Source of the DNA: Methylophaga sp. UBA2689 | GTDB lineage: Bacteria; Pseudomonadota; Gammaproteobacteria; Nitrosococcales; Methylophagaceae | DNA: 61,107 nt | Assembly: GCA_002354555.1 (NCBI GenBank) | Contig: DELT01000031.1 | Span: 1-61,107, forward strand | Reading direction: 5' to 3' | Part shown: piece after piece, positions 3,062 to 56,546 of the stretch | How positions within the stretch are numbered: position 1 is the first letter of the stretch | Layout: each line of letters starts with the position of its first letter | The notes under the pieces: model-generated | What the model saw: the letters and a program-made list of their open reading frames with translations, nothing else | Told to the model about the DNA's origin: nothing | Database searches by the model: none | Translations under genes and position numbers: made by a program

Positions 3062-3609
3062 GACCAGCCCTGATTCGGTAAAAAAATTTCACAGACCAGC
3101 AAACTATTGTCAGCAAAATAAAAACATGAGCGTCTTGCCCACATTATTGAACTGTCGTTAAGTTCATTACTGCTGTGTTTTGCCAGTTCAAACAGGCTTT
3201 GTCCTGAACGCAGACTGGCTACTTCCAGCGGGCCGCGTTTAATCGCCGGATCGGTAAACAGAATTTCACCCAGAGATCGATTACCCAGATGATGAATATG
3301 CAGGTGTGCCTGCAATGCCTGATAACTGGCACGCGGCACAATGGTGCGGGCAAATACGCGAGCCTGATCACCATCGCGTAATATCACCTCACGGCAATAG
3401 GCATGTTCATACAACGGCTGTTCAAGCTTCAATGCTTCTTCTGTCAGGGGTTTCTGCCAACCGGTTTGCTGCAGATCCACGTTGAATTGCTGCTGACTGG
3501 TCTGCTGCAGGCGCAACGTTAACGATCCTTTGTCCGTTAACCATCCAGTCAGTTCGCCTGGTAGTTTTGCAGTTGACGCGGGATGCCAGTGTGTTTGGCT
3601 TTTTAACAT
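3058..3609 (-). CDS. ubiC: Chorismate lyase UbiC
   Basis: 183 residues. It converts chorismate to 4-hydroxybenzoate and pyruvate, the committed step into ubiquinone, in the cytosol. The family signature is visible: REVILRDGDQARVFARTIVP in the middle, 'LGNRSLGEILF', and a C-terminal WARRSCF segment containing the conserved arginines. It overlaps ubiA (ATGA) and follows recG by 13 bases, so it is probably expressed from the long gmk-to-ubiA transcript. Confidence 0.93.
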   Translation of the reverse strand: MLKSQTHWHPASTAKLPGELTGWLTDKGSLTLRLQQTSQQQFNVDLQQTGWQKPLTEEALKLEQPLYEHAYCREVILRDGDQARVFARTIVPRASYQALQAHLHIHHLGNRSLGEILFTDPAIKRGPLEVASLRSGQSLFELAKHSSNELNDSSIMWARRSCFYFADNSLLVCEIFLPNQGWS

Positions 3610-3622
3610 TGATTCTGATGAC

Positions 3623-5704
3623 TCATACTTGTCCGAAGTTCAGTTTTGTACCAAACCAGCGTTGAATTAATGGTGTGACGTTTTCCGGATAGTGGTTTAT
3701 TAATGTCTCAGCCGCTCTGCTGACCGCTGGCAACAAATCCTGATCGGCCAGTAAATCGGCCACCCGAAACTGGGGCAAACCGGTTTGCCGTGTTCCCAAC
3801 ACTTCGCCAGGACCACGAATTTCCAAATCGCGCTGGGCAATAACAAATCCGTCATTGCTTTCGCGTAAACAGGCCAGCCGGGCCAGACCGTTTTCCGACA
3901 GCGGAGGATGGTACATCAATACACAATGACTCTGCACCGTGCCACGCCCTACCCGACCACGTAACTGATGTAGCTGGGCCAGTCCCAGTCGCTCGGCATT
4001 TTCAATCACCATTAAACTGGCGTTAGGCACATCCACCCCAACTTCAATCACCGTTGTCGCCACCAGCAGATCAATTTCACCCTGTTTGAATGCCTGCATC
4101 ACCTGTTCTTTCTCAGCTGACTTCATTCGGCCATGCACCAGTGCGATCCTTAAGTCTGGTAACGCCTGTTCCAATTGTTCGGCAGTATCTTCTGCAGCCT
4201 GACATTGTAAATGCTCAGACTCCTCAATCAAGGTACATACCCAGTAAACCTGGCGTTTTTGCTGACAGGCCACATGAATGCGTTCAATCACTTCCTGTCG
4301 ACGGTTATCGGCCACCACCACGGTGGTCACCGGTTGCCTGCCAGGCGGCAGTTCATCAATTATTGATACATTCAAATCAGCATAGGCTGTCATTGCTAAT
4401 GTTCGAGGAATAGGTGTAGCGGTCATCACCAATTGATGTGGCAGGATGTCCACCGCTTTACCTTTGTCGCGTAACGCCATACGCTGATGCACGCCAAACC
4501 TGTGCTGCTCATCAATTATTACCAGACCCAAACGATTAAATGTCACTTCATCCTGAAATAACGCATGGGTGCCTACAGCAACATTGATCTCGCCTGCAGC
4601 CAGCGCAGCAATTACCTGTCGACGCTGTGCTGTTGTTTGCTTGCCTGCGCACCAGCCAACCTCGATGCCTAATGGCTCAAGCCAGTTACGAAAGGTCTGA
4701 TAATGCTGCTCTGCGAGTAATTCGGTGGGTGCCATCATCACTGCCTGATAGCCACTTGAGACTGCCATTAAGGCTGATAAAGCAGCCACCACTGTTTTGC
4801 CTGATCCGACATCACCCTGCACCAACCGCTGCATGGGAATATTCTGTTGCAGATCATTACGGATCTCTGTGATAACCCGTTGCTGAGCTCCGGTTAATGG
4901 GAATGGTAGTCGTTGTAAAAACGTTTCACTGAACCTATCGGCTTCAAACATTGGCGCTTTATGTTGCTGAGTGCGATAGCGGATTTGACGCATAGTGAGC
5001 TGCTGAGCCAGTAATTCTTCAAATGCCAGGCGTTTCTGTGCCGGATGTTCACGAGCGATTAACTGACCGACATCACTATCGGGCGGGGGTAAGTGAACAT
5101 ATTTCAAGGCTTGCGTCAGATCAAAATGAGCCACTCTTGGATCTAGCAATGCTTCTGGTAAATAGGACGGCATCGTTTGCTTTTCCAGCAGTTTGATTGC
5201 CTGATTCAACAGTTTCCGCCACGATAATTGATGCAAACCTTCGGTTGTCGGATACACCGGTGTTAAGGCTTCATCCACAGCAAATGGCGCCTCACCCTGA
5301 ATTATCTGATATTCAGGATGCACCATTTCCAGCGCAGATGGACCACTGCGCACTTCGCCAAAGCAACGAATGCGTTGTCCACGAGCGAGTTGCTGTTGCT
5401 GGGTTTTGGAAAAATGAAAGAAGCGTAATACCAGTGCTCCGGTGCCATCACTGACATGACATAGCAATGAACGACGCCGACCAAACTTGACCTGACTGAG
5501 CTGAATAACCCCTTCAACCAGTTTTTCCTGTTGTGGTCGCAAACTGCCAATAGGCATTAAACGCGTGCGATCCTGATAACGCAGTGGCAGATGAAACAGG
5601 AGATCCTGAATGTAGCGGATCCCCAGTTTTTCCAGCTTTTCAGCAAGTTTTTCGCCGACACCTTTCAGTGAGGTGACCGGATCAGTTATGGCCAGTTCAG
5701 TCAC
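3623..5704 (-). CDS. recG: ATP-dependent DNA helicase RecG
   Basis: 693 residues, full length for RecG. An N-terminal helix-hairpin-helix/wedge OB domain (about 1-200) precedes the superfamily 2 helicase core. Walker A is GDVGSGKT at 297-304, the DEQH box is at 398-401, and motif III is MTATPIPRTLAMT. The C-terminal QLRGRVGRG arginine motif and EIRGPGEVLGTRQTG hook are present. RecG remodels stalled replication forks, drives branch migration and unwinds R-loops. It sits between ridA and ubiC in the minus-strand run that starts at gmk. Confidence 0.98.
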   Translation of the reverse strand: MTELAITDPVTSLKGVGEKLAEKLEKLGIRYIQDLLFHLPLRYQDRTRLMPIGSLRPQQEKLVEGVIQLSQVKFGRRRSLLCHVSDGTGALVLRFFHFSKTQQQQLARGQRIRCFGEVRSGPSALEMVHPEYQIIQGEAPFAVDEALTPVYPTTEGLHQLSWRKLLNQAIKLLEKQTMPSYLPEALLDPRVAHFDLTQALKYVHLPPPDSDVGQLIAREHPAQKRLAFEELLAQQLTMRQIRYRTQQHKAPMFEADRFSETFLQRLPFPLTGAQQRVITEIRNDLQQNIPMQRLVQGDVGSGKTVVAALSALMAVSSGYQAVMMAPTELLAEQHYQTFRNWLEPLGIEVGWCAGKQTTAQRRQVIAALAAGEINVAVGTHALFQDEVTFNRLGLVIIDEQHRFGVHQRMALRDKGKAVDILPHQLVMTATPIPRTLAMTAYADLNVSIIDELPPGRQPVTTVVVADNRRQEVIERIHVACQQKRQVYWVCTLIEESEHLQCQAAEDTAEQLEQALPDLRIALVHGRMKSAEKEQVMQAFKQGEIDLLVATTVIEVGVDVPNASLMVIENAERLGLAQLHQLRGRVGRGTVQSHCVLMYHPPLSENGLARLACLRESNDGFVIAQRDLEIRGPGEVLGTRQTGLPQFRVADLLADQDLLPAVSRAAETLINHYPENVTPLIQRWFGTKLNFGQV

Positions 5705-5730
5705 CTGTTGCGGCCGCTAAAATAGTTGAG

Positions 5731-6117
5731 TTATGCGCCCAGATGCAAAATAGCATCCATTTCTACCGCCACATCTTTGGGTAAAGAGGCCACGCCAATC
5801 GCTGCACGAGCAGGATAGGGCTGCTCAAAGTAATCGGCCATGATTTCATTGACAGTGCCGAAATGGGCTAAATCAGTGAGATAAATATTCAGTTTTACCA
5901 CATCCTGCAAACTGCCGCCTGATGCAGTAGCAACCGCTGACAAGTTATCAAATACCCGGCGAACCTGAGTAGCAAAATCGCCTTCAATCACAGTCATGGT
6001 TTCCGGGACCAATGGAATTTGGCCAGAAAGATAAACAACATCACCAACTTTTACTGCTTGCGAATAGGTACCAATAGCTTCAGGAGCGTTGCTGGTATGG
6101 ATAATTTCTCGGGACAT
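5731..6117 (-). CDS. ridA: RidA family enamine/imine deaminase
   Basis: 128 residues, typical of the small trimeric RidA (YjgF/YER057c/UK114) family. These cytosolic proteins hydrolyse reactive 2-aminoacrylate and other enamines released by PLP enzymes. Conserved features include [26 protein letters not shown] near the N-terminus, an arginine in the [10 protein letters not shown] helix, and the C-terminal [23 protein letters not shown] segment. It lies between spoT and recG, an arrangement seen in other gammaproteobacteria. Confidence 0.93.
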
Positions 6118-6162
6118 AAAAACTCCGGCTAAGTCATCATTGAAGACGACAGATTAAACAAA

Positions 6163-8322
6163 TCAGTTATTAATACGGTTAATGCGTTCAACCATTTCGA
6201 GTTGGCGTAAACGACGGATAATGCGAGCCAAGTGCTGACGATTAGTGACTTCAATTGTCAGCCGGAGATTGGTATAGCCACCATCCCGCTCGTCAACAAT
6301 GACATTATCAATATTCGATTCAGCTTCAGAAATCACCGAAGCAATCGTCGCCAGTGCACCACGTTGATTACGCAGATGCATCATCAAATCTACAGGGAAA
6401 TCACGATTGATCTCTTTCGCCCAGGCTACATCCAGCCACTTTTCATTTTGCTCGCGTAAATGGGTGGTATTTTTACAGCTGCGCTGATGAATAATGATAC
6501 CGCGTCCTGCACTGACAAACCCGTGAATTGGATCACCTGGAATCGGATGACAGCAGCGGGCAAAATTAACCACCATGCCTTCAGTGCCCGCAATCAGCAG
6601 TGCCTGTGGCTCTTTATTGGGGGTTTCTTCCTGTAACAATTTTTGTGCGACCAGTAAGGCAGATATATTACCCAGTCCCAGATCACTCAATAATTCATCA
6701 AAGTTTTCCAGCTCATACTCTTTCAAAAGTGCAGTGATTCGCTTGGTGGGGATGTTTTCCAATGCAGTTGAAAATGCTGTCAGATGTTTGTTCAGCAGTC
6801 GCAATCCAAGCTGAATCGCCTCCTCGCCTTGCAGATGCTTGAGGTAGTTACGAATATTGGTCCGCGCTTTTGGCGTCACTACAAAATTGAGCCACGCCGG
6901 ATTGGGATGCGAGGTCGGCGATGTAATGATCTCGACTGATTGTCCGGTTTCCAGTGGTGAACTCAATGGCACCAGATGGCGGCCAACTCTTGCTGCTACA
7001 CAACTGTTACCAACATCGGAGTGAACTGCATAGGCAAAATCCACTGCCGAGGAGCCTCTCGGTAAGGTGAGGATCTCGCCTTTCGGTGTTGATACATAAA
7101 TCTCGTCCGGGAATAAATCGATACGCAGATTTTCCAGAAACTCCATTGAGTCACCGGAGCTTTTCTGCATTTCCAGAATACCATGCAACCATTGTCTGGC
7201 TTTACGATGCGCCAGCGTATTGCCAGCAACTTCACCGGTTTTATAGAGCCAATGAGCGGCCACACCCGCTTCAGCCAATTGATCCATATCGCGAGAACGG
7301 ATCTGGACTTCTATCGGTACGCCGTAAGGGCCAAACAACACGGTATGCAATGATTGATAACCATTCGCTTTAGGGATCGCAATATAGTCTTTGAATTTGC
7401 CCTGCACTGGCTTGTAAAGGTTATGTACCACGCCCAGCATTCGATAGCAGGCATCCACATCATCGACAATAATCCGGAAGGCATAAACATCCATGACTTC
7501 AGAAAAAGACAGCTGTTTGCTGACCATTTTTTTGTAAATGCTGTAGAGATTTTTCTCGCGGCCCTGAATATCGGCACTGAGGCCTTCCTGTTCCATTCTA
7601 TTGAGTATGGAAGCAGTGATTTGGCTGACGATTTCCTTGCGATTTCCCCGCGCTTTTCGCACGGCGTCCCCTAATACACGATAACGAATAGGGTATAGAA
7701 CGTGAAAGCCGAGGTCTTCCAGTTCACAACGCATCAGATTCATTCCCAGACGCTGGGCGATAGGAGCATATATTTCGAGGGTTTCATGGGCAATGCGGCG
7801 GCGTTTTTCCGGTCTCAGATGGCCCAGAGTACGCATATTGTGCAGACGGTCAGCAAGCTTGACGATAATAACCCGTATATCACGGGACATTGCCAGCAAC
7901 ATTTTTCGCAGATTTTCAGCCTGGGCGTGTTGTCTGGTTTCAAATGCCGCCTGAGCCAGCTTGGTCACACCTTCTACCAGCTCGGCAACGGGTTCACCAA
8001 ATTCGGCAATCACGTCACGTTTGGACATTTCCGTGTCTTCGATAACGTCGTGCAGCAAACCGGCCATGATGCATTCATAATCCATATGCATCATCGCCAG
8101 TACATGAGCTACCGCTAACGGGTGAGTGATATAGCGCTCACCACTGCGTCGGGTCTGCCCTTCATGGCATTGCTCAGCAAAATGATAAGCTCGCCGAATC
8201 GACTCGACCTGATTATTTTCTAAATAATTTGACGTGGCAAAACACAGATCATCTATAGTGAGTTTGGGCTCGGACTCCTGAATGAAGTCTAGTTCAGACG
8301 CAACAGATGGTTTTGCACTCAC
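6163..8322 (-). CDS. spoT: Bifunctional (p)ppGpp synthetase/hydrolase SpoT
   Basis: 719 residues with the full RelA/SpoT layout. The HD hydrolase domain has HD at residues 91-92 within GLLHDVIEDTE, so hydrolase activity looks intact. The synthetase domain follows, with a KFKDYIAIPKANGYQSLHT segment at about 309-327. That basic xFKD motif resembles the RxKD of SpoT/Rel rather than the acidic ExDD of RelA. A TGS domain lies at about 395-455 and a C-terminal ACT domain at about 640-719. It makes and degrades the stringent-response alarmone. rpoZ is immediately upstream (6 bp gap). Confidence 0.97.
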   Translation of the reverse strand: MSAKPSVASELDFIQESEPKLTIDDLCFATSNYLENNQVESIRRAYHFAEQCHEGQTRRSGERYITHPLAVAHVLAMMHMDYECIMAGLLHDVIEDTEMSKRDVIAEFGEPVAELVEGVTKLAQAAFETRQHAQAENLRKMLLAMSRDIRVIIVKLADRLHNMRTLGHLRPEKRRRIAHETLEIYAPIAQRLGMNLMRCELEDLGFHVLYPIRYRVLGDAVRKARGNRKEIVSQITASILNRMEQEGLSADIQGREKNLYSIYKKMVSKQLSFSEVMDVYAFRIIVDDVDACYRMLGVVHNLYKPVQGKFKDYIAIPKANGYQSLHTVLFGPYGVPIEVQIRSRDMDQLAEAGVAAHWLYKTGEVAGNTLAHRKARQWLHGILEMQKSSGDSMEFLENLRIDLFPDEIYVSTPKGEILTLPRGSSAVDFAYAVHSDVGNSCVAARVGRHLVPLSSPLETGQSVEIITSPTSHPNPAWLNFVVTPKARTNIRNYLKHLQGEEAIQLGLRLLNKHLTAFSTALENIPTKRITALLKEYELENFDELLSDLGLGNISALLVAQKLLQEETPNKEPQALLIAGTEGMVVNFARCCHPIPGDPIHGFVSAGRGIIIHQRSCKNTTHLREQNEKWLDVAWAKEINRDFPVDLMMHLRNQRGALATIASVISEAESNIDNVIVDERDGGYTNLRLTIEVTNRQHLARIIRRLRQLEMVERINRINN

Positions 8323-8328
8323 GGTAAA

Positions 8329-8589
8329 TTAGATTTCGCTTTGCAGCTCTTCATCGCTGACGATGCTTTCTTCGGCATGCTGACGAGCTGAGGTTTTGGT
8401 CAGAATTGTGCGGTCAACCAGACCTGCGGCAATTTCACGCAGTGCCAGAACAGTTGGCTTATCGTTATCGACCGGCACCATTGCATCATCACCCATGGCA
8501 ATCTGGCGAGCGCGTTTTGCCGCAACCAGCACTAATTGAAAACGGTTATCTACATTTTCGAGGCAATCTTCAACGGTAGTACGTGCCAT
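8329..8589 (-). CDS. rpoZ: RNA polymerase omega subunit
   Basis: 86 residues. It begins [20 protein letters not shown] and contains the omega core ('[11 protein letters not shown]' and '[15 protein letters not shown]'). It binds the beta' subunit, helping RNA polymerase assembly and forming part of a ppGpp site in proteobacteria. It lies between gmk and spoT, linking the alarmone enzyme with its target. The 50-base gap to gmk shows no clear terminator. Confidence 0.97.
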
Positions 8590-8639
8590 GTTAATTTGTC
8601 CTGTGGTTAAAACCAGTAATTTTACGAGAGATACGCAGC

Positions 8640-9251
8640 TTAAGCCAGTAAGTCCGCTAACAAGGTGCTGTAATTTGACTGTTGTACAGCCAGTTTGTGC
8701 CGACTGGCGACCACAATCGCAGTCAGGCTGGCGAGCGCATGATCAAAGTCATCATTCACAATCAGATAATCAAATTCAACGTAATGTGACATTTCACTCT
8801 CTGCATCACGCATTCTGCGCGAAATCGTTGCTTCATCATCCTGTCCGCGGCCTCTCAATCGCTGCTCAAGCGCCTGTTTTGATGGCGGCAAAATAAAAAT
8901 ACTACTGCTGTCAGGAAAGTTTTTTCTGACCTGCTGAGCACCCTGCCAGTCAATCTCCAGAATCACATCATTTCCGGCATGTAACTGGTGATGCACTGCT
9001 GCAGCTGAAGTACCATAACTGTTATCAAACACTGTTGCGGATTCAAGGAAATCTCCTGCTTCACGCATCTTGCTGAAGATATCCTGACTGACAAAAAAGT
9101 AATCTTCGCCGTCAGCTTCTCCCGCTCTGGCAGCCCGGGTAGTATGTGATACCGATAATCGAACATGCGGATCCTGTTTGACCAGTGCCCGAACCAGACT
9201 GGTTTTCCCTGCACCGGAGGGTGCCGCCACAATAAATAAACTTCCAGACAT
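8640..9251 (-). CDS. gmk: Guanylate kinase
   Basis: 203 residues. It phosphorylates GMP/dGMP to the diphosphate using ATP. The N-terminal P-loop [12 protein letters not shown] (about 9-20) and the GMP-binding segment '[20 protein letters not shown]' are present, as is the lid arginine region ([18 protein letters not shown]). It is the first gene of the minus-strand run gmk-rpoZ-spoT-ridA-recG-ubiC-ubiA. The promoter should lie in the 240-base divergent region shared with the iron transporter. Confidence 0.97.
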
Positions 9252-10592: not shown

Positions 10593-12251
10593 ATGTCCTT
10601 CATAATTCAATTTCGCCCCTACCCTGCATTCATTTTTGTACTGGCAGTGGCCCTGTCAATGCCTGTGGCAGTGGTTTTGGCGCATGTTTTTGTTCCCAGT
10701 GGGGATATCTGGCAGCATTTAAGCAGTACTGTACTTCCTGACTATATCCGCAATTCCCTGCTGTTAATGTTTGGGGTGGCTATTGGTACTCTGCTTATTG
10801 GCGTGACAGCTGCCTGGCTCACCACAATGTGTCAATTTCCCGGTCGCAGTGTTTTCGAGTGGGCTTTGTTGCTGCCGATGGCAATGCCTGCGTATATCAT
10901 TGCCTATACCTATACCGGCATGCTGGACTTTGCCGGGCCGTTACAAACCAGCTTGCGTGAATGGTTTGGCTGGCAATACGGAGATTACTGGTTCCCACAG
11001 ATCCGCTCGCTTAATGGCGCGGTTGCCATGCTGACTCTGGTGCTTTATCCCTATGTCTATTTGCTTAGCCGCGCGGCATTTCTCAATCAATCAATCTGCG
11101 TGCTTGATGTCAGCCGGACGTTAGGTAATGGGCCATGGAAAACATTCTGGAAGGTAGCGCTTCCGCTGGCTCGTCCTGCAATCATTGCCGGTTTATCATT
11201 AGCGTTGATGGAAACCTTAGCCGATTACGGGACCGTTCAATTTTTTGGCGTCAGCACCTTTACCACCGGCATCTTCAGAACCTGGTTTGGTATGGGTAGT
11301 GCGGCAGCAGCTGCACAACTCGCCGCTGGACTGATGGTTTTTGTCTTTGCCTTAATTCTTATCGAACGTTATTCCCGTCGTAAAGCCCGCTATCACCACA
11401 CCAGTCGTCGTCATCAGGATCTGCGTCGATTCCAACTGACCGGTGGCCGGGCATTCCTGGCGTTACTGTTTTGCCTGTTTATTCTTGGACTGGGATTTTT
11501 ATTACCAGCATTTCAACTGCTTAGCTGGACCATTAATGTGGCAGATACCGTTATTGATGCAGAGTTTCTAAGATTACTGGTCAACAGCCTGTCACTTGCC
11601 GCGTTTGCTGCCGTGCTGGCATTGTTACTGGCTCTGGTTATGGCTTATGCCCAACGACTTTATCCAGGCAAACTGGTCAGTGGAGCTGTCCGGGTGGCAG
11701 GAATGGGGTATGCCGTGCCTGGCGCTGTAATTGCCGTTGGTGTGATGATCCCTTTTGCCTGGATTGATAACACCATTGATGATCTGGCCCGTAGTCAGTT
11801 TAATTATTCCACTGGATTGTTATTGAGTGGCACATTAGTCGCGGTCACCTTTGCCTATCTGACCCGTTTTCTTGCTGTTTCATTACAAACCGTAGACAGT
11901 GGCTTAACACGCATTACCCACTCGATGGATGAAGCGGGTCGTTCGTTTGGTTTTCGACCATTACAGATACTGAGACAGATCCATATCCCGATGTTAAGTG
12001 CATCATTGATGACGGCATTGTTACTGGTTTTTGTCGATGTTTTAAAAGAGCTTCCTGCAACATTGATATTGCGGCCATTTAACTTTAATACCTTAGCGGT
12101 AAAAGCCTATGAACTGGCTTCAGATGAACGTTTGGCAGAAGCCGCTCCGGCCGCATTGGCCATTGTAATTGTCGGCATTATTCCGGTTATTCTGTTAAGT
12201 AAAACCATTACCCGATCCCGCAAGTTAAAATTGGCGATTGATGAAAACTGA
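10593..12251 (+). CDS. Ferric iron ABC transporter, fused permease (FbpB type)
   Basis: 552 residues with about twelve membrane helices in two homologous halves, as in the FbpB/SfuB/ThiP type where both transmembrane subunits are one chain. Each half has an EAA loop: near 'VSRTLGNGPWKTFWKVALPLARPAI' in the first, and 'MDEAGRSFGFRPLQILRQIHIPML' in the second. The loops contact the ATPase. The ATG at 10593 has no good Shine-Dalgarno sequence because the hairpin sits where it should be. The 3' end overlaps the ATPase gene, indicating coupled translation. Confidence 0.93.
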   Translation: MSFIIQFRPYPAFIFVLAVALSMPVAVVLAHVFVPSGDIWQHLSSTVLPDYIRNSLLLMFGVAIGTLLIGVTAAWLTTMCQFPGRSVFEWALLLPMAMPAYIIAYTYTGMLDFAGPLQTSLREWFGWQYGDYWFPQIRSLNGAVAMLTLVLYPYVYLLSRAAFLNQSICVLDVSRTLGNGPWKTFWKVALPLARPAIIAGLSLALMETLADYGTVQFFGVSTFTTGIFRTWFGMGSAAAAAQLAAGLMVFVFALILIERYSRRKARYHHTSRRHQDLRRFQLTGGRAFLALLFCLFILGLGFLLPAFQLLSWTINVADTVIDAEFLRLLVNSLSLAAFAAVLALLLALVMAYAQRLYPGKLVSGAVRVAGMGYAVPGAVIAVGVMIPFAWIDNTIDDLARSQFNYSTGLLLSGTLVAVTFAYLTRFLAVSLQTVDSGLTRITHSMDEAGRSFGFRPLQILRQIHIPMLSASLMTALLLVFVDVLKELPATLILRPFNFNTLAVKAYELASDERLAEAAPAALAIVIVGIIPVILLSKTITRSRKLKLAIDEN

Positions 12252-40618: not shown

Positions 40619-42673
40619 TTACAACCCGAAAGGATAAGTATCCGGCATCCCTTGCATGGCCTCAAAGTTCAGTGGCGTGATGGCCTTAGTGTGATCAAAC
40701 CAGATATATTCATCAAACTGTTGACCGAGTCGGGCTTGAAAATAATGGCTGGCTAACTCGCTTTGAGGACGGTAAACCACGCCAATTGCACGTTCAGAAT
40801 GCTCTTCTTCTAAACGTTGGCGTAATATTTTGGAGCCGGGTTGGCGCATGCCGAGCATAAAGGCAGGAATCTTAGTGTCATGACAAACACGTTCCCAACT
40901 ACCTTCCATTGAAGGACGAATGAGTTTAACCTGCATTGGTTCACCCCAGTTATCAGCAGCAGCCACAGTACCAGCGTGAGTACCAAAACCGATCAGGTAA
41001 GCTTCATCGCCAAATTTACTGCGGCATAACTGCCCTACATTATGCTCACCTCGTGCAGACATTGAGGTAGCGCGTGCATCTCCAATATGGGAGTTGTGTT
41101 CCCAAACTACTATTTTTGCCGGTTGATCGGTATTTTGAGACTTAAAATCCAATAGTGAGCAAAGAGTGTCAAACATATGGCTGTCGCGCATATTCCACGA
41201 AGTGATATAGCCTTTATACATACTACGATAGTAGGCTTCAGCATTGGCAACCAGCCGTGCATTCTGCATTGCATCAAGATAACTCTCTCCATCGTTTGCT
41301 ACATACTCTGCCTGTTTTTCCATCAGATCCATCAGCATATCCACAACCGAATCTTCACATCTTTCATATTCTCCCGAAGTTGCTGCACGACCATACGTTG
41401 CCGGATCAGATTGCCATGGCGTTAAACAGCCATAGCGTTCACGTGCTATCTCTGCAGCCTCTGGGTCAACGTCTTTTAGATAGTTAATCACCTCATCAAT
41501 TGATGAAAACATGCTGTAGAGATCGAGCCCGTAGAACCCCAATTTTAAGTTGGGTCTGGCCTGCATGCCATTATGTCGACGCAACCATTCGACAAACTCC
41601 TGCATCTCCTTATTACGCCACATCCATGTCGGAAAACGGGTAAAAGCACGCCATTCAGAAGGTGCCGTAGTCAGTTCTCGAACATATTGATCAATGCGTG
41701 CGGCATCTGGCCAGTCAGCTTCAACCGCAACCATGTTAAAACCTTTATTTTCAATCAACTCCCGTGTGAGTCTGGCTCGAAAACGGTAAAATTCAGAAGT
41801 GCCATGGGTTGCCTCACCTAACAGAACGACACGTGCATCACCAATTCGGTCAAGTAACGGGGTGAGGTCAACCGTTTCAATTGAACCAATTGGCTGTGCT
41901 GCTTCGGCTATCAAAGTTGCGGTGTCTGCCGATTTATTCTGCTCCGCAGATTGCTGTGATTTACTGGATGAGAAGGAGTTTTCTATTGAAATGCTGTGGC
42001 TATCTGATTGTTCATGCCAGCCCTCCTCGCCCAACAAGGGCACAAAGTGCACTCGGGTGATGATCTCCTCATCAAACTGGTCTTCATCTATCCGGGTTAC
42101 CTGAAGTAACCGTTGATAATGACGATTGCCGATCGGAATCACCAGACGACCACCAATTTTTAGCTGTTGTTTTAAGGTAGAAGGAATTTCAGGTCCGCCT
42201 GCCGATACCAGAATGGCATCATAAGGCGCTTGCTGGGCATAGCCGAGTGTGCCATCCCCACTCATAATTTCAATATTATGATAGCCCAGATTATCCAGAA
42301 CCATTTTAGAACGCTCGGCGAGTGCCGTGATTCGCTCAATACCATATACCTGATCAGCTATTTGGGCGATAATTGCCGCTGCATAACCGCTCCCGGCACC
42401 TATTTCCAGTACCTTTTCTCCACCTTTCAGATTGAGTGCTTCGACCATTAGACCGACAATATACGGTTGGGATATAGTCTGACCTTCAATCAGTGGTAAG
42501 GCAGAATCCTCGTAAGCAAATTCCCACATATTCTCTGAAAGAAATTTCTCTCGTGGAACAGTTCTCATCGCTTCAAGCACTGTGTCTGATTTCAGATTTC
42601 TGTTCATTAACTGGTTGCGAACCATTTGATGTCGTGAATGCTGATAATCGGATAAATGATCTATAGAAGCCAT
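40619..42673 (-). CDS. Fusion: protein-L-isoaspartate O-methyltransferase + erythromycin-esterase-family domain
   Basis: 684 residues. Residues 1-219 are a complete Pcm, with VLEIGAGSGY (88-97) as the SAM site, 'QTISQPYIVGLM' as the substrate segment, and 'RVHFVPLLGEEGW' as the typical end. A serine-rich linker (about 220-255) leads to a full erythromycin-esterase domain (about 256-684) with GEATHG (286-291). Pcm repairs isoaspartate damage. Ere enzymes hydrolyse macrolide lactones, but most family members have unknown substrates, so a resistance role is not implied. A perfect palindrome lies upstream (42770-42790). Confidence 0.92.
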   Translation of the reverse strand: MASIDHLSDYQHSRHQMVRNQLMNRNLKSDTVLEAMRTVPREKFLSENMWEFAYEDSALPLIEGQTISQPYIVGLMVEALNLKGGEKVLEIGAGSGYAAAIIAQIADQVYGIERITALAERSKMVLDNLGYHNIEIMSGDGTLGYAQQAPYDAILVSAGGPEIPSTLKQQLKIGGRLVIPIGNRHYQRLLQVTRIDEDQFDEEIITRVHFVPLLGEEGWHEQSDSHSISIENSFSSSKSQQSAEQNKSADTATLIAEAAQPIGSIETVDLTPLLDRIGDARVVLLGEATHGTSEFYRFRARLTRELIENKGFNMVAVEADWPDAARIDQYVRELTTAPSEWRAFTRFPTWMWRNKEMQEFVEWLRRHNGMQARPNLKLGFYGLDLYSMFSSIDEVINYLKDVDPEAAEIARERYGCLTPWQSDPATYGRAATSGEYERCEDSVVDMLMDLMEKQAEYVANDGESYLDAMQNARLVANAEAYYRSMYKGYITSWNMRDSHMFDTLCSLLDFKSQNTDQPAKIVVWEHNSHIGDARATSMSARGEHNVGQLCRSKFGDEAYLIGFGTHAGTVAAADNWGEPMQVKLIRPSMEGSWERVCHDTKIPAFMLGMRQPGSKILRQRLEEEHSERAIGVVYRPQSELASHYFQARLGQQFDEYIWFDHTKAITPLNFEAMQGMPDTYPFGL

Positions 42674-51179: not shown

Positions 51180-52409
51180 ATGAACAAAATCACTGATGCA
51201 GAATTAAAGCGATCCGTACCTGCCCCGCTTCTGGCTTTATATGGTCTGGGAACCATCCTGGGCGCTGGAATTTATGTATTGATAGGCGAGATTGCCGGTG
51301 AAGCCGGAATCTATGCCCCGCTCACTTTTTTACTTGCATCCATAGTGGCGGCGTTTACTGCCTTTTCCTTTGCTGAACTGGCTGTTCGGCTACCCAGAAG
51401 TGGTGGTCCGGTTGCCTATGTTAGCGAGGCTTTCGGCTGCAGATGGCTTTCAATAATTACAGGCTGGATGATAGCCGCCACTGGGATTGTGTCAGCAGCC
51501 ACTATCACTACAGGTTTTGCGGGATATTTTCAGATTTTTCTCTCCTGGCCGGCTCTTCCACTGATGATTGGCCTGGTTCTGTTGCTGGGCAGTATTGCGG
51601 CTGTTGGCATGAAAGGAACGGCATGGTTTATGGGCATCACCACTGTTGCAGGTGTGTCGGGGTTAATCATCATACTGATGGTAACGGCTGGTAATTTTTC
51701 AGAATTGCCCGGTCGACTTTCTGAAGCACGACCTTTATCCAGCAGCTCTGCTTTGAGTGGCATTGTTCTGGGGGCTTTTCTCGCTTTTTATGCCTATATA
51801 GGTTTTGAAGACATTGTTCACGTCTCGGAAGAAGCCAAAAATGTCAGTAAAGCTATGCCTTTGGCCATTTTGTTTGCCTTGATTGTCTCTTTATTCTTTT
51901 ATATTACCGTCTCGATGGGCGCAGTACTGACCTTATCTGCTGAAGCACTTGCTGATTCTAAAGCACCCTTGGTTGATGTCATGAAAGCTGAAGGTTACTC
52001 AGGAAATATTTTGGGCGCACTTTCATTGTTTATTATTGTTAATGGTGCCCTGGCTCAGATCGTCATGGCTTCAAGAGTCCTTCATGATATGGGCAGGCAT
52101 CTTAATGGGGTTCCCAAGTGGCTGTCACGAATAAACCGGCGTACTCATACACCATTAACAGCCACGTTACTTATTGTTTTTATAATTATTTTATTGGTAA
52201 CGCTTTTGCCAACCGAAAAATTAGCACAAGCCACATCCTTCATTATCCTGATAGTATTTGCTTTATCTAATTTCGCACTTATTCGTCTTAAAAGAAACAC
52301 GACAACTCCTGTTGGTTTCAGCGTTCCTTTAATTGTGCCCTATGCTGGCGCCATTCTCTGCATTCTAATGATAGCCGGTCAGTTTTTTGTTTCTGCTACA
52401 TCGCATTAG
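51180..52409 (+). CDS. Amino-acid permease, APC superfamily
   Basis: 409 residues, twelve membrane helices. 'YGLGTILGAGIYVLIGEIAGEAG' is the conserved first helix with the glycine-rich substrate loop. 'LGAFLAFYAYIGFEDIVHVSEEAKN' carries the second substrate motif. It probably imports an amino acid or amine. Upstream of DeoR regulator on the same strand, within 116 bases, and adjacent to the kinase/PLP fusion, which may act on the imported compound. Confidence 0.9.
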   Translation: MNKITDAELKRSVPAPLLALYGLGTILGAGIYVLIGEIAGEAGIYAPLTFLLASIVAAFTAFSFAELAVRLPRSGGPVAYVSEAFGCRWLSIITGWMIAATGIVSAATITTGFAGYFQIFLSWPALPLMIGLVLLLGSIAAVGMKGTAWFMGITTVAGVSGLIIILMVTAGNFSELPGRLSEARPLSSSSALSGIVLGAFLAFYAYIGFEDIVHVSEEAKNVSKAMPLAILFALIVSLFFYITVSMGAVLTLSAEALADSKAPLVDVMKAEGYSGNILGALSLFIIVNGALAQIVMASRVLHDMGRHLNGVPKWLSRINRRTHTPLTATLLIVFIIILLVTLLPTEKLAQATSFIILIVFALSNFALIRLKRNTTTPVGFSVPLIVPYAGAILCILMIAGQFFVSATSH

Positions 52410-52525
52410 ATAAGGGCGTTTATTGTGCATGAGATCTTCGTAAATAACGGCTATTGCTGCAGGATGAATGTGCGAAATCACTGACGGATATGGTACCTTT
52501 CAGCCATAAATAATGAGTACCAGAC

Positions 52526-53296
52526 ATGTCACGAAAAAAAGCTGCCCGCCATAAGTCAATTATTGATGAACTGACAATTCATCCATCAATGCGCGTTAGT
52601 GAATTAGCCTCGACATTAAACGTGACGACAGAAACCATTCGGCGTGATCTCGAAGAACTGGCAGAACAAAACCTGATCAGCCGTACATACGGTGGTGCGT
52701 TATTGCGTCAGGCGGTTGAACCGGTACTCAATGAACGGCATAAAGCCAATCTGGCTGAACGGGCTGCCATTGGAAAAAAAGCGGCTCCACTGCTGAAAGA
52801 TGCCAAGGTTTTAATGATAGGTTCAGGAGTAACCACGGTTGAAGTTGCCAAACGTATTGCTTATGAGATGAGTAATATTACGGTTATTACCCATTCTTTT
52901 GGGGTGGCTACGGTGCTGTCATTTAATCCAACAATTAAGGTGATCATGGCGCCAGGTGTTTATCATGCCGAAGAAGGTGCTACCCACGGTTCGGTTACTT
53001 GTCAGTTTCTGGCAAATTACACTGCCGACTGGGCGATTTTGGGGGCCAGTGGTCTGGCACCTACCGGACCAACAGATGCGTTAGTTGATGCAGCAGATGT
53101 CTATCAACAGATGATTCGGCAAAGCAGTCACAACATGATTGTGGCTGATCACAGCAAATTCGATCGCATGGCAACAGCACGCTATGCAAAGTGGAATGAA
53201 ATTGACCATTTAATCACTGATCAAAAACCCAGTGGGCCACTTAAAAAAGCTTTATCCAGTGAACAGGTGCAGATTACTGAAGCGCCGCTCCAATAA
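52526..53296 (+). CDS. DeoR/GlpR family transcriptional regulator
   Basis: 256 residues. The N-terminal winged helix ('MRVSELASTLNVTTETIRRDLEELAEQNLISRTYGGALL') is a textbook DeoR HTH. The C-terminal sensor domain (about 80-250) is the DeoR effector domain that binds sugar phosphates or related phosphorylated intermediates. This suits regulation by a phosphorylated product of the neighbouring kinase. It converges with the fusion gene across only 10 bases. Confidence 0.92.
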   Translation: MSRKKAARHKSIIDELTIHPSMRVSELASTLNVTTETIRRDLEELAEQNLISRTYGGALLRQAVEPVLNERHKANLAERAAIGKKAAPLLKDAKVLMIGSGVTTVEVAKRIAYEMSNITVITHSFGVATVLSFNPTIKVIMAPGVYHAEEGATHGSVTCQFLANYTADWAILGASGLAPTGPTDALVDAADVYQQMIRQSSHNMIVADHSKFDRMATARYAKWNEIDHLITDQKPSGPLKKALSSEQVQITEAPLQ

Positions 53297-53306
53297 TTGC
53301 TGTTAC

Positions 53307-55631
53307 TTACGTATATTGAACCTGCTGGGAAAACGTCTCCAAAAAGAAATCGGCTTCGGATTGCGTCAGTGTTAATAACGGCCGTAATTTCAACGTGCTA
53401 CCAAATCGTCCTGCAGCTCCAATCAAAACACCAGCCGCTTTTAAATCATTAATCACCTGTTTGGTTTTAATAGGATCGGGAAGGTGTTTCTTATCTCGTT
53501 GGCCAATATCGATTCCCAGAAACAGTCCCTGCCCTCTCACCTCGGCAACGAAAGCGGATTGTTTAGCAATTGAGTTCAACTGAGTTTTTAAATATAGCCC
53601 CATTTTCCGGGCATTTTCCTGCAGGTTCTCTTGTTTGATAGCATCTAGAACAGCCTGTCCCGCAGCAGCGGCAACGGGATTACCACCAAAGGTATTGAAA
53701 TAACCGACATCAGCACAAAACCTGTCCAGATAATCTGATTTTGTTGCGACTGCCGCCATTGGAAATCCATTACCCATCGGCTTTCCCATTGTCACAATAT
53801 CTGGTGTTATCCCGTGGAAATCAAAGCCCCAGAATGCCTCACCTAATCGGGCAAACCCAGGCTGCACTTCATCTGCGATAAATACGCCACCAGCGTTACG
53901 CACTACATCCACGGCTTTTTTTAGAAAACCTCTGGGCTCGGTATAGATACCGTCTGATGAAAAAATGGTATCGACTAATAAAGCCGCGACGCTAAATCCT
54001 CGTTCCTCTAAAAGCTCAATGGCCTCAGCGACTTTTGCAGCAAACCCGGCTTCAATATCGTCACCATAGACCTCAACAGATGGGGCCGGTATTGCCACAA
54101 CATGATCTGGCAACTTGCCCTGTTTGATAATTGATGGTGACACATCGGTGACCAAACTGGTATTCCCGTGATAGGCATCTTCAGTGACAATAAAACCCTC
54201 GCCACCGGAAGCCTGTTTTGCCAGACGCATCGCCAGATCATTGGCCTCACTGCCCGAACAGGTCATTACAATATTGGTAATAGAATCAGGCAACGTGGCC
54301 TTTAACGATTCAAGATAATCATCGACCACCGAGACCAGATAGCGGGTATGCACATTTAATGTGGCGATTTGCTTTGTCACCGCCTCAACCACATTGGGAT
54401 GGCAATGTCCCAGACAAGGTACATTATTGTAAAAATCGAGATAGCGTTTACCATCTGCTGCCTGCATCCAGGCACCTTGTGCCGAGACCATTTCAATAGG
54501 CTCCTGATAAAACAATACCGAGGCAGCCCCCAGGTTATTTAATCGTCGTGTCACGTTTTGCTGATGTTCGCCCTGATTGGCTTCAAAGGCATTCATATCC
54601 AGAATACGTTTTTCAGTTAAACCATTACTTTCTTCAGCCTGTTGCTGCAGATATTTTTTTGCCAGTTCAATAGTGCCTAAGGTGAATTGTTCAAAACCGG
54701 CTTCAGCAGCGGTTTCTGTTTCAGGGTGACTTGCAACCCAGGCGGTCAGCAACAATCTCCGAAACATTACAAACGTTGAAATCATCGCTTCATCTTCAGC
54801 AGATAACGGCGCTATCGATTTATAACCACGCACCCATGCACGTTCCAACTCTGGCAATAAAGGAGAGGTTTCCAAAAAGGACACGGCAGAGGCAAAATCA
54901 TAGATAAACCAGCTAAATCCGCAGTCATCAAAATCAATCACACTTAACTGTTTATCATCGACCAGCAAATTCGCTAATCGCAGATCAGCGTGCACCAAAC
55001 CAAAGCGATCAGGGCTTTCACCATAGTGATTTAATTTTGCTTCCAATACTTCACATAACTGCTCTAATATTGCCTGGCCTGCTGGATCCAGCCCCGGTGC
55101 ATCACGCCAGTCTCCCCATAAAGGATTTGCTCCAAAAGCGCTGTCAAAATTCCATTTTTTACGGGTAAAACCTTCCGGTAATGACCATTGTCTTGCCTGT
55201 TGATGCAATCTCGCCGAGGTTGCACCCAATATCTCAAAACCCTCTATCAGTGATTCATCCTCATTCGGTTGTTTACCCGGCATAAACTCGAAAGCCACCA
55301 CGTAACGTTCCACGCCATCATCACTGAAGGAAGCCACCATTGAACCATCATGGCGGGTTAACGGTTCCGGTGTGTTAAGCAGCGCTTGCTCACGAAGCGA
55401 TTGAATCCAGCGTAATTCGGAAAGGATTTCATTTTTGGAATGATATTCAGGGCGATGTACACGAATAATGAAGCGTTGATTATTTTCTTCATCGGTCACC
55501 ATAAAGGTGGCATTTTCAGAAACCGTTAGCAGTGAGATAGTGGCGGTTTCATTGATATTCCAATGCCCCAGTAATTTTTCGACCTCACCAGTCAATTGCT
55601 GCAGATAATCGTCGTTATATAAACCGGTCAT
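53307..55631 (-). CDS. Fusion: APH-type kinase + class III PLP enzyme (phospho-lyase-like)
   Basis: 774 residues. Residues about 1-330 are an aminoglycoside phosphotransferase-fold kinase, with HADLRLANLL (214-223) and DFDDCG (233-238). About 345-774 are a class III aminotransferase fold with DEVQPGFARLG and PLP lysine Lys617 in TMGKPMGNG. The PLP half resembles ethanolamine-phosphate/phosphohydroxylysine phospho-lyases (AGXT2L), and the kinase half resembles hydroxylysine kinase (HYKK). The longer fusion with a peptidase M23 domain in the middle is not seen. Kinase plus lyase in one chain is the best inference. Confidence 0.88.
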   Translation of the reverse strand: MTGLYNDDYLQQLTGEVEKLLGHWNINETATISLLTVSENATFMVTDEENNQRFIIRVHRPEYHSKNEILSELRWIQSLREQALLNTPEPLTRHDGSMVASFSDDGVERYVVAFEFMPGKQPNEDESLIEGFEILGATSARLHQQARQWSLPEGFTRKKWNFDSAFGANPLWGDWRDAPGLDPAGQAILEQLCEVLEAKLNHYGESPDRFGLVHADLRLANLLVDDKQLSVIDFDDCGFSWFIYDFASAVSFLETSPLLPELERAWVRGYKSIAPLSAEDEAMISTFVMFRRLLLTAWVASHPETETAAEAGFEQFTLGTIELAKKYLQQQAEESNGLTEKRILDMNAFEANQGEHQQNVTRRLNNLGAASVLFYQEPIEMVSAQGAWMQAADGKRYLDFYNNVPCLGHCHPNVVEAVTKQIATLNVHTRYLVSVVDDYLESLKATLPDSITNIVMTCSGSEANDLAMRLAKQASGGEGFIVTEDAYHGNTSLVTDVSPSIIKQGKLPDHVVAIPAPSVEVYGDDIEAGFAAKVAEAIELLEERGFSVAALLVDTIFSSDGIYTEPRGFLKKAVDVVRNAGGVFIADEVQPGFARLGEAFWGFDFHGITPDIVTMGKPMGNGFPMAAVATKSDYLDRFCADVGYFNTFGGNPVAAAAGQAVLDAIKQENLQENARKMGLYLKTQLNSIAKQSAFVAEVRGQGLFLGIDIGQRDKKHLPDPIKTKQVINDLKAAGVLIGAAGRFGSTLKLRPLLTLTQSEADFFLETFSQQVQYT

Positions 55632-55766
55632 AACTTAAACCTAGATAAACAGTGGTGAAATAATTTATAACGCCAAAATGTCCGACTTGCAATATTTTAG
55701 TTGCAAAGAAAAAGATTTATGCTAAAAATACGGTTAACTAATGAACTCAACTTCTGGAGGTATTTC
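55632..55766. promoter_or_regulatory. 135-base divergent promoter region of the kinase/PLP fusion and SDR
   Basis: Short AT-rich gap between divergent start codons. It is the obvious place for a DeoR-type operator. The SDR has TGGAGG six bases from its ATG. I could not pick out a clear repeat by eye. Confidence 0.4.
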
Positions 55767-56546
55767 ATGCTCACATCCATTCAAGGTAAGACGGTTATTG
55801 TTACAGGTGGCTCGAAAGGGATTGGTAAAGGTATTGCGAGTGTATTTGCTAAGCAGGGAGCCAAAGTGATGATTGCCGCCCGGGGCGAAAGTTCAGCAAA
55901 AGAGGCTATCGAAGAAATTAAAACCGCTGGAGGCACCGCTGAATATTATTTATGTGATGTCTCAAACTGGGAGCAGGTTCAGGCACTGGTTGACCATACC
56001 GAAAACACATTTGGACCCGTTGATATTCTGTGCGCTAATGCGGGCACTTTCCCGCAAAAGAAAATTGTCGATCTCTCCCCCGAAGCGTGGGATGACATCA
56101 TGTCGACTAATTTGAAAAGCACCTTTCTGTGTGTCAAAGCCTGTATTCCACAATTTGAAAAGCTTGGTAAAGGTCGTGTCGTGGTCACGTCATCCATTAC
56201 AGGTCCCATTACCGGCTACCCCGGATGGGCCCATTATGGGGCGACCAAAGCGGGACAACTTGGTTTTATGAAAACCGCTGCGATGGAACTGGCACGTTAT
56301 AACACCACCATTAATGCCGTAATGCCGGGCAATATTGTCACGGAAGGTCTGGCCAGTCTGGGTGAAGATTATCTCAACAGCATGGCTGCTGCGATTCCAT
56401 TAAAACGACTTGGTGCTGTAGAAGATATCGCCAATGCGGCATTGTTTTTTGCTTCAGATGAAGCAGCCTATATCACCGGCCAGCAAATGGTTATTGATGG
56501 TGGTCAGACCTTACCAGAATGCGTCGAAGCCGTAGACGAAATCTAG
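55767..56546 (+). CDS. Short-chain dehydrogenase/reductase (3-oxoacyl reductase-like)
   Basis: 259 residues from ATG 55767, chosen for its TGGAGG site; an upstream frame to 55701 adds unrelated residues. TGGSKGIGKGIA is the cofactor motif, 'LCANAGTF' follows, and the catalytic YGATK lies at about 160, with a serine in TSSITG. FabG-like SDR. Its divergent position opposite the kinase/PLP fusion suggests it oxidises or reduces an intermediate of the same pathway (inference). Confidence 0.9.
   Translation: MLTSIQGKTVIVTGGSKGIGKGIASVFAKQGAKVMIAARGESSAKEAIEEIKTAGGTAEYYLCDVSNWEQVQALVDHTENTFGPVDILCANAGTFPQKKIVDLSPEAWDDIMSTNLKSTFLCVKACIPQFEKLGKGRVVVTSSITGPITGYPGWAHYGATKAGQLGFMKTAAMELARYNTTINAVMPGNIVTEGLASLGEDYLNSMAAAIPLKRLGAVEDIANAALFFASDEAAYITGQQMVIDGGQTLPECVEAVDEI

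What the first reader, a model, noticed from the sequence alone, without database searches (positions are those of the whole stretch)
51180..56546. Candidate amine catabolic module: permease, DeoR regulator, kinase/phospho-lyase fusion, SDR
An APC permease, a DeoR repressor (phosphorylated ligands), a single chain joining an APH-type kinase to an AGXT2L-like PLP domain, and a divergent SDR sit together. Known parallel: hydroxylysine kinase plus phosphohydroxylysine phospho-lyase, or ethanolamine phosphate phospho-lyase. The chain could phosphorylate an amino alcohol or hydroxylysine-like compound and eliminate phosphate and ammonia to an aldehyde, which the SDR then reduces or oxidises.
Basis: inference. 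Interest (0 to 1): 0.72.

Follow-up and report, generated by a model that had tools for sequence, protein, structure and literature searches.

The report
Shell-free aminopropanol breakdown module, Methylophaga
A marine methanol-eating bacterium appears to carry a small, locally controlled gene set, with two enzymes joined into one chain, that strips the nitrogen from the small amine aminoacetone/aminopropanol; it is a new arrangement of a pathway known from bacteria that pack it in protein shells.

Summary
The genes are real and at the stated places; the organism is a Methylophaga. The 774-aa chain joins a kinase whose best solved relative is the microcompartment-associated aminopropanol kinase (6ef6) to a PLP domain nearest to the phospholyases 5g4i and human 6tor, ahead of other class III enzymes. 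The SDR is nearest to the RMM microcompartment aminoacetone/aminopropanol dehydrogenase (6ci8/6ci9). So kinase plus phospho-lyase holds, but substrate and order change: aminoacetone -> (S)-1-amino-2-propanol (SDR, upstream) -> phosphate ester -> propionaldehyde + NH3 + Pi. Of 80 loci with the kinase, 48 carry the SDR, 52 the phospholyase, 37 the DeoR, and 4 shell genes. The fusion was seen only in Methylophaga, in 10 of 24 genomes (two with broken copies); a box TTTGCAA-N8-TTGCAAGTC between SDR and fusion occurs once in exactly those 10. The APC permease is a loose member (3 of 10). No methylmalonyl-CoA mutase or PrpB was found, so nitrogen scavenging is likelier than growth on the carbon. Substrate and direction are inferred, not shown. 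New variant of a known kind.

The parts
51180..52409 (+). APC-family amine/amino-acid permease, 409 aa; lineage-specific companion
   Evidence: Pfam AA_permease_2. Adjacent 92-93% homologue in 2 further fusion-bearing Methylophaga genomes (G375, G377), no match at E <= 1e-60 in the other 7 of 10; a 39% homologue in one genome without the fusion.
52526..53296 (+). DeoR/GlpR-family regulator, 256 aa, presumed repressor of the divergent SDR/fusion promoter
   Evidence: Pfam HTH_DeoR and DeoRC; homologue of >=40% identity in 37 of 80 kinase loci; a member of its ORF cluster in 24 of 24 loci that carry the ABC importer.
54642..55631 (-). Kinase half of the fusion (residues 1-330): APH-fold amino-alcohol kinase
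   Evidence: Best PDB match 6ef6 (283 bits, next 80 bits), titled 'microcompartment-associated aminopropanol kinase'. H214/D216 (HAD) and D233-D236 (DFDD) invariant in the 9 kinases aligned.
53307..54611 (-). PLP half of the fusion (residues 341-774): phospho-lyase-type class III domain; Schiff-base lysine inferred at K617
   Evidence: Best PDB matches 5g4i (347 bits) and 6tor (312 bits), next 168 bits. NN[VIM] before GH (from residue 402) in 65 of 66 near PLP relatives, the miss being truncated; in 0 of 10 distant ones and 0 of 5 own-genome class III paralogues.
54612..54641 (-). Junction between the two halves (residues 331-340)
   Evidence: AlphaFold2 model: pLDDT < 50 at 336-348 and 366-372, both domains mostly well predicted. 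Of 52 loci with a near PLP, 5 (L043-L047) are fused and 47 have separate ORFs (46 so scored, plus L095, scored FUSED there by an artefact of gene order; ORFs).
55684..55707 (-). Candidate DeoR operator TTTGCAACTAAAATATTGCAAGTC in the divergent promoter region
   Evidence: 1 match of the core pattern in 61 kb against 0.01 expected; once in each of the 10 of 24 Methylophaga genomes that have the fusion, upstream of it, and in none of the other 14; both halves kept in L048 and L049, one half in L055.
55767..56546 (+). SDR, 259 aa: aminoacetone/(S)-1-amino-2-propanol dehydrogenase-like; S142, Y157, K161 of the usual SDR active site present (motif recalled)
   Evidence: Best PDB matches 6ci8/6ci9 (291/290 bits), 53-54% identity in Foldseek; >=50% identical SDR in 48 of 80 kinase loci; residues.

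Best explanation
A shell-free aminoacetone/1-amino-2-propanol catabolic module. The SDR interconverts aminoacetone and (S)-1-amino-2-propanol (in this setting probably reducing aminoacetone). The kinase half phosphorylates the hydroxyl of (S)-1-amino-2-propanol with ATP. The PLP half eliminates phosphate from the ester; the enamine left behind hydrolyses to propionaldehyde and ammonia. The fused chain pairs the two steps. DeoR represses the divergent SDR/fusion promoter through the TTGCAA box and is released by a pathway intermediate, plausibly the phosphate ester. The host is a Methylophaga in which two usual routes of propionate use were not found, so the gain is probably nitrogen; the aldehyde is probably oxidised by a general dehydrogenase such as the ExaC-like one. 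Shown: gene content, homology, conservation, box. Inferred: substrate, direction, regulation, physiology.
For: Best solved relatives: kinase 6ef6 aminopropanol kinase; PLP half 5g4i (347 bits) and 6tor (312) phospholyases, the next class III entry at 168, same order in Foldseek; SDR 6ci8/6ci9 aminoacetone/aminopropanol dehydrogenase. The kinase and SDR of an RMM-type shell locus, L122, find the same entries first. Co-location: SDR in 48 of 80, phospholyase in 52, both in 40, DeoR in 37. SDR >=50% in 5 of 8 class loci with the close kinase against 0 of 12 with a distant or no kinase match (Fisher p = 0.004; related genomes, so not fully independent). Where the PLP family differs (7 of 80 loci, 4 of them shell loci) kinase and SDR are still together. 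Same layout in Agrobacterium fabrum C58 with a PotD/F-type importer, FabG-named SDR and DeoR. Box in 10 of 10 fusion-bearing and 0 of 14 other Methylophaga genomes. No match to PF01642 or PrpB; ExaC-like aldehyde dehydrogenase, 894 bits against a cut-off of 900 for a partial protein.
Against: No activity is measured. In the SDR tree the Methylophaga SDRs lie in another subgroup than the shell-locus SDRs (support 87/53 and 86/94), so substrate is carried across the base of the family. NCBIfam names the SDR FabG above its cut-off (NF004202, 391.7 against 333). 20 of 80 kinase loci have neither SDR nor PLP relative nearby. Of 9 class genomes with the SDR at 1e-70, 3 (G103, G261, G320) had no match to the chain at 1e-60. 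One locus with a distant kinase (L163) has a 44% SDR, below the threshold used. Box and genes are linked, so shared descent alone could give part of their co-occurrence. No threonine dehydrogenase over cut-off in this genome, so the source of aminoacetone is unknown; the genome is 91% complete.
Confidence: 0.7

Rival explanations
1. Ethanolamine catabolism: kinase makes phosphoethanolamine, PLP half gives acetaldehyde + NH3 + Pi; the SDR does something else, for instance reduces the aldehyde.
For: PLP half resembles human ethanolamine-phosphate phospho-lyase (6tor, 312 bits). A 43%-identical kinase and a 45%-identical PLP protein sit beside an annotated ethanolamine permease, without the SDR among the 12 features shown, on a Chimaeribacter plasmid. 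Acetaldehyde fits the ExaC-like dehydrogenase.
Against: The window has the aminoacetone-dehydrogenase-type SDR beside the kinase, as in 48 of 80 loci; the kinase's nearest solved relative is aminopropanol kinase. Its permease is only 25% identical to the Chimaeribacter one.
Confidence: 0.17
2. Hydroxylysine catabolism: hydroxylysine kinase plus phosphohydroxylysine phospho-lyase.
For: Same chemistry, and an amino-acid-type permease is adjacent.
Against: No feature points to an amino-acid substrate; kinase and SDR match enzymes of a C3 amino alcohol; the permease is not conserved with the module. No hydroxylysine kinase was among the 3 PDB sequences matched at 1e-10, so the direct comparison was not made.
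Confidence: 0.04
3. One reading: the SDR acts on the aldehyde after the phospho-lyase.
For: SDRs can be promiscuous, and no aldehyde dehydrogenase match lies on the contig of the module.
Against: Best relative is crystallised with NADP + aminoacetone (6ci9 title); in all four shell loci an aldehyde-dehydrogenase-family gene (cluster c16; Pfam run on one member) is present in addition to the SDR.
Confidence: 0.1
4. The PLP half is an ordinary omega-aminotransferase.
For: Pfam Aminotran_3, 255 bits.
Against: 347 and 312 bits to phospholyases against 168 for the next class III entry; NN[VIM] before the GH motif, found in 0 of 5 own-genome class III paralogues.
Confidence: 0.03
5. The kinase supplies aminopropanol phosphate for vitamin B12 synthesis rather than catabolism.
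For: Aminopropanol phosphate is a B12 building block (recalled).
Against: The kinase is fused to a domain expected to destroy its product; B12 uses the R isomer (recalled), while the kinase paper (title; its link to 6ef6 is recalled) concerns the S isomer. Not tested by gene search.
Confidence: 0.02

Closest known systems
RMM/AAUM (Aut) microcompartment locus of Mycobacterium and Rhodococcus: aminoacetone utilisation
   Same: Aminopropanol-dehydrogenase-type SDR and aminopropanol-kinase-type kinase close together, plus an APC permease and a class III PLP enzyme (PMC6620236 section 14).
   Different: No shell-gene match in the window; PLP half of another subfamily (26-28% identity to the shell-locus one), fused to the kinase; DeoR instead of GntR; no aldehyde dehydrogenase in the module.
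Agrobacterium fabrum C58 pAt cluster ATU_RS25115-ATU_RS25070 (annotated phosphotransferase, aspartate aminotransferase family, FabG, PotD/F ABC importer, isochorismatase, DeoR)
   Same: Same enzymes (kinase 49.8%, PLP 53.5% identical) and DeoR; no shell gene among the 22 features shown.
   Different: Kinase and PLP are separate genes; ABC importer in place of the APC permease; extra hydrolases.
Human ETNPPL (6tor) and Arthrobacter A1RDF1 phospholyase (5g4i)
   Same: PLP half: 38-41% identity, NNV motif, class III fold.
   Different: Stand-alone chains; titled as (phosphoethanolamine) phospholyases, substrate here inferred as aminopropanol phosphate.
APH + class III fusions with a different kinase (779-793 aa, and about 1010 aa with a Peptidase_M23 domain; compare NCBIfam PRK06148/PRK06149)
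   Same: Kinase and phospholyase-type PLP domain in one chain.
   Different: Kinase half gave no tblastn match to this one at E <= 1e-8 and no SDR of >=50% identity nearby in the 5 examined; the window scores far under the PRK06148 cut-off (448 against 1128).

Membership tests
(S)-1-amino-2-propanol kinase (6ef6 type) | Best match among solved structures is 6ef6, with a wide gap to other APH kinases | tested here: met
   283 bits against 80 for the next; Foldseek TM 0.88 on the target.
(S)-1-amino-2-propanol kinase (6ef6 type) | Clusters with the kinases of RMM shell loci, apart from other APH kinases found beside phospholyases | tested here: met
   88 close kinases, shell-locus ones included, against 6 distant, support 100/100.
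(S)-1-amino-2-propanol kinase (6ef6 type) | ATP-dependent phosphorylation of (S)-1-amino-2-propanol | not testable with these tools
   Needs an enzyme assay.
PLP phospho-lyase of class III (EC 4.2.3.2 type) | Closer to 5g4i/6tor than to transaminases; NN motif before GH | tested here: met
   347/312 bits against 168; motif in 65 of 66 near relatives, 0 of 10 distant ones and 0 of 5 paralogues. That the motif defines the family is my inference from the alignments.
PLP phospho-lyase of class III (EC 4.2.3.2 type) | Elimination of phosphate, no transaminase activity | not testable with these tools
   Needs an enzyme assay.
Aminopropanol/aminoacetone dehydrogenase (6ci8/6ci9) | Best match among solved structures, full length | tested here: met
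   291 bits over residues 1-258 of 259 against 196 for the best FabG; two unassigned mycobacterial SDRs, 3pk0 and 3rih, at 273 and 264; rank 1 in Foldseek.
Aminopropanol/aminoacetone dehydrogenase (6ci8/6ci9) | Same subgroup as the shell-locus dehydrogenases | tested here: not met
   Within the family (95/93), but in another subgroup of it, with weak to moderate support (87/53 and 86/94).
RMM/AAUM microcompartment | Shell proteins (BMC, EutN/CcmL) in the locus | tested here: not met
   No tblastn match (E <= 1e-4) of four R. jostii RHA1 shell proteins in the window; matches in L106, L107, L109, L122 only, of 80 loci. The rest of the genome was not searched.
RMM/AAUM microcompartment | Aldehyde dehydrogenase in the locus | tested here: not met
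   PF00171 over the whole genome: matches on contigs C108, C83, C61, C34 and C29, none on C97, the contig of the window.
NCBIfam FabG (NF004202) | Score over the curated cut-off | tested here: met
   391.7 against 333; explains an automatic name FabG. True FabG function not tested.

The most novel reading that the evidence does not exclude
The shell-free module is the common form of this pathway and the RMM organelle a derived version with an exchanged PLP enzyme; in Methylophaga the kinase and phospho-lyase were fused and the pathway serves to take nitrogen, not carbon, from aminoacetone/aminopropanol, the C3 skeleton being discarded by a methylotroph that cannot use it.
Probability: 0.35. 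Interest if true: 0.55.

Novelty: new variant of a known kind. Interest (0 to 1): 0.42.

Why it matters
In the annotated parallel of A. fabrum the genes are called a phosphotransferase, an aspartate aminotransferase family protein and a FabG, so a widespread amine pathway is hidden under misleading names. The shell-free version, and the fused chain in particular, allow a direct test of a question raised by the RMM organelle: does the pathway need a shell to handle propionaldehyde? If it is a nitrogen route in methylotrophs, it adds a small amine to the nitrogen sources to consider for a marine group.

Tried and rejected
Hydroxylysine and ethanolamine as first substrates, the SDR as aldehyde reductase, and an ordinary transaminase were weighed and set lower (see rivals). 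Threonine as an internal source of aminoacetone: no Tdh over the cut-off, best match 164.5 bits against 458. Growth on the propionyl skeleton: PF01642 and TIGR02317 without a match; methylcitrate synthase and other routes not searched. Promoter and terminator scans gave no more than shuffles. A 737-aa neighbour of the SDR in L045 and L046 (and a 743-aa one in L047) was looked at by eye only; the start of the 737-aa ones looks like a molybdopterin oxidoreductase (recalled). Literature: no paper on a Methylophaga amino-alcohol pathway or on this fusion appeared in the listings of searches of open-licence PMC papers; the aminopropanol-kinase paper itself is not held and is known here by title and from recall.

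My first ORF caller missed genes in GC-rich loci; it was replaced, and the presence counts of SDR, PLP and DeoR rest on tblastn; counts of the ABC importer and hydrolases rest on ORF clusters and may be low. One row called FUSED (L095) is an artefact of gene order. L089 (set A) and L150 (set B) are the same contig by length. Set B minus L150 went into the trees, the PLP-only loci (L164-L169) did not; SDR rows of 70 bits or less were left out there.
Full report
What is there. The window belongs to a Methylophaga: the nearest records of the kinase are Methylophaga MAGs and the isolate M. sulfidovorans DSM 11578. The four genes stand as described. The SDR most likely starts at 55767, leaving a 135-bp divergent gap to the fused chain.

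The chain. Residues 1-330 are an APH-fold kinase, 341-774 a class III PLP domain. In the PDB by sequence, the kinase half finds 6ef6 first (283 bits) and then amicoumacin kinases (80 bits or less); the PLP half finds 5g4i (347) and human 6tor (312), with other class III enzymes from 168 bits down. An AlphaFold2 model from 36 sequences (pLDDT 84, pTM 0.55, so the domain arrangement is not to be trusted) gives the same by Foldseek: ranks 1-4 are 5g4i and 6tor; 6ef6, titled 'microcompartment-associated aminopropanol kinase', is the only kinase among the 50 rows shown. The motif NNV before GH is shared by the window, 5g4i and 6tor. NN[VIM] before GH is found in 65 of 66 near relatives, the miss being a truncated gene, in 0 of 10 distant PLP relatives and in 0 of 5 class III paralogues of this genome. 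It also occurs in near relatives that lie beside no such SDR, so it marks the PLP subfamily, not the aminopropanol substrate.

The SDR. Best relatives are 6ci8/6ci9 (291/290 bits), titled aminoacetone dehydrogenase and 'RMM microcompartment-associated aminopropanol dehydrogenase NADP + aminoacetone holo-structure'. Next come two unassigned mycobacterial SDRs (273 and 264 bits), then FabG-named proteins at 196 bits and less. The SDR and kinase of an RMM-type locus from another bacterium, L122, find 6ci9/6ci8 and 6ef6 first as well. NCBIfam nevertheless calls this SDR FabG, above its cut-off.

Neighbourhoods. Of these, 48 have an SDR of at least 50% identity, 52 a PLP relative of at least 40%, 37 a DeoR of at least 40%; 40 have SDR and near PLP, 7 SDR and a distant PLP, 1 SDR alone, 12 near PLP alone, 20 neither. 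Several loci are cut by contig ends: among 56 with full flanks the counts are 35, 33 and 28. An ABC importer (two permeases, ATPase, solute-binding protein) occurs in 24 loci, all with SDR and DeoR by ORF cluster (domains of one member each). Shell genes occur in 4 of 80 (L106, L107, L109, L122), none in the window. Those four, and three shell-free loci (L100, L101, L114), carry a different PLP enzyme (23-28% identity to the window's), while kinase and SDR stay paired. In a sample of the window's class, 22 of 369 genomes (this one included) match the chain at E <= 1e-60 and 9 of 339 the SDR at 1e-70; three of these nine (G103, G261, G320) are not among the 22. Five of 8 loci with a close kinase have the SDR (one more, L154, has a partial SDR at a contig end), against 0 of 12 with a distant or no kinase match; one of the twelve, L163, has a 44% SDR. 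A fully annotated parallel is Agrobacterium fabrum C58.

Trees. 88 close kinases, those of the shell loci included, separate from 6 distant ones (100/100). SDRs of at least 50% identity form one group (95/93). Within it Methylophaga's lie with those of Oceanobacter, Marinomonas, several alphaproteobacteria and a Desulfobacter (87/53), the shell-locus SDRs in another subgroup (86/94). This is the main weakness of the substrate call.

The fusion. In the loci examined only Methylophaga (L043-L047, and the window) has both halves in one ORF; the other 47 of 52 loci with a near PLP have separate genes, 46 of them with gaps of 21-150 bases between match ends. Within the genus 10 of 24 genomes hold it; in two (G374, G375) it is in pieces. 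Fusions of similar layout with another kinase type exist in other lineages, so the architecture alone is not new.

Regulation. TTTGCAA-N8-TTGCAAGTC lies in the divergent gap (55684-55707). It occurs once in each of the 10 fusion-bearing genomes, directly upstream of the fusion, and not in the other 14; the reversed control pattern hits once in all 24. The two Oceanobacter loci keep both TTGCAA halves, Marinomonas (L055) one, while the sequence around differs. Linkage explains part of this. That DeoR binds it is inference.

Physiology. No match to methylmalonyl-CoA mutase or PrpB, no Tdh over cut-off; an ExaC-like aldehyde dehydrogenase is present on another contig. In a 91% complete genome this makes a nitrogen route the likelier purpose. 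The APC permease is adjacent in 3 of the 10 fusion-bearing genomes and not matched in the other 7; in 24 of 80 loci elsewhere an ABC importer is present. Both suggest an external substrate.

Comparison with print. [quoted passage not shown] PMC4207490 and PMC8156839 were seen as passages; the latter cites a proposal that RMM turns aminoacetone into propionyl-CoA. PMC8154272 (passages) notes that class III lyases are few. PMC8007038 was seen as passages of its reference list, which gives the title of the (S)-1-amino-2-propanol kinase paper (Mallette and Kimber 2018). I recall, without having seen it here, that its abstract says the kinase is widespread and often beside a candidate phospholyase; if so, the shell-free pairing was noticed before, and what is added here is the Methylophaga fusion, the SDR-DeoR-ABC/APC context, the box, and the PLP exchange between shell and shell-free loci.

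Verdict. It is best read as a shell-free, fused variant of the aminoacetone/aminopropanol pathway, regulated locally and likely used for nitrogen.

Noticed in passing
window 40619-42673 (-): 684-aa protein joining a protein-L-isoaspartate methyltransferase domain (residues 14-217) to an erythromycin-esterase-family domain (307-662); function of the pairing unknown.
   Followed up: no
window 10593-12251 (+): 552-aa ABC permease with two BPD_transp_1 stretches, i.e. both membrane domains apparently in one chain.
   Followed up: no
G374:C48:4219-6532 and G375:C1:2889392-2891699: Two Methylophaga genomes have the fusion gene in several pieces while the upstream box is kept; decay or sequencing error.
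   Followed up: partly
L051, L054, L059-L062, L076, L084; L106, L107, L109, L122; L180: Hydrolases recur beside the module: an isochorismatase-type ORF cluster in 8 of 80 loci, a FmdA/AmdA-type cluster in the four shell loci (one member of each run through Pfam), isochorismatase and P1 peptidase in A. fabrum. The natural substrate may arrive as an amide or peptide.
   Followed up: partly
L181 (R. jostii RHA1 pRHL2) 2519-4115 and 6412-8008: A block of four genes (three annotated shell genes and a hypothetical) appears twice, all four pairs with the same protein accessions.
   Followed up: no
L182 (Chimaeribacter arupi plasmid) 3912-9074: Related kinase and phospholyase with an annotated ethanolamine permease and an AraC regulator, no SDR annotated: a possible ethanolamine version.
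   Followed up: partly
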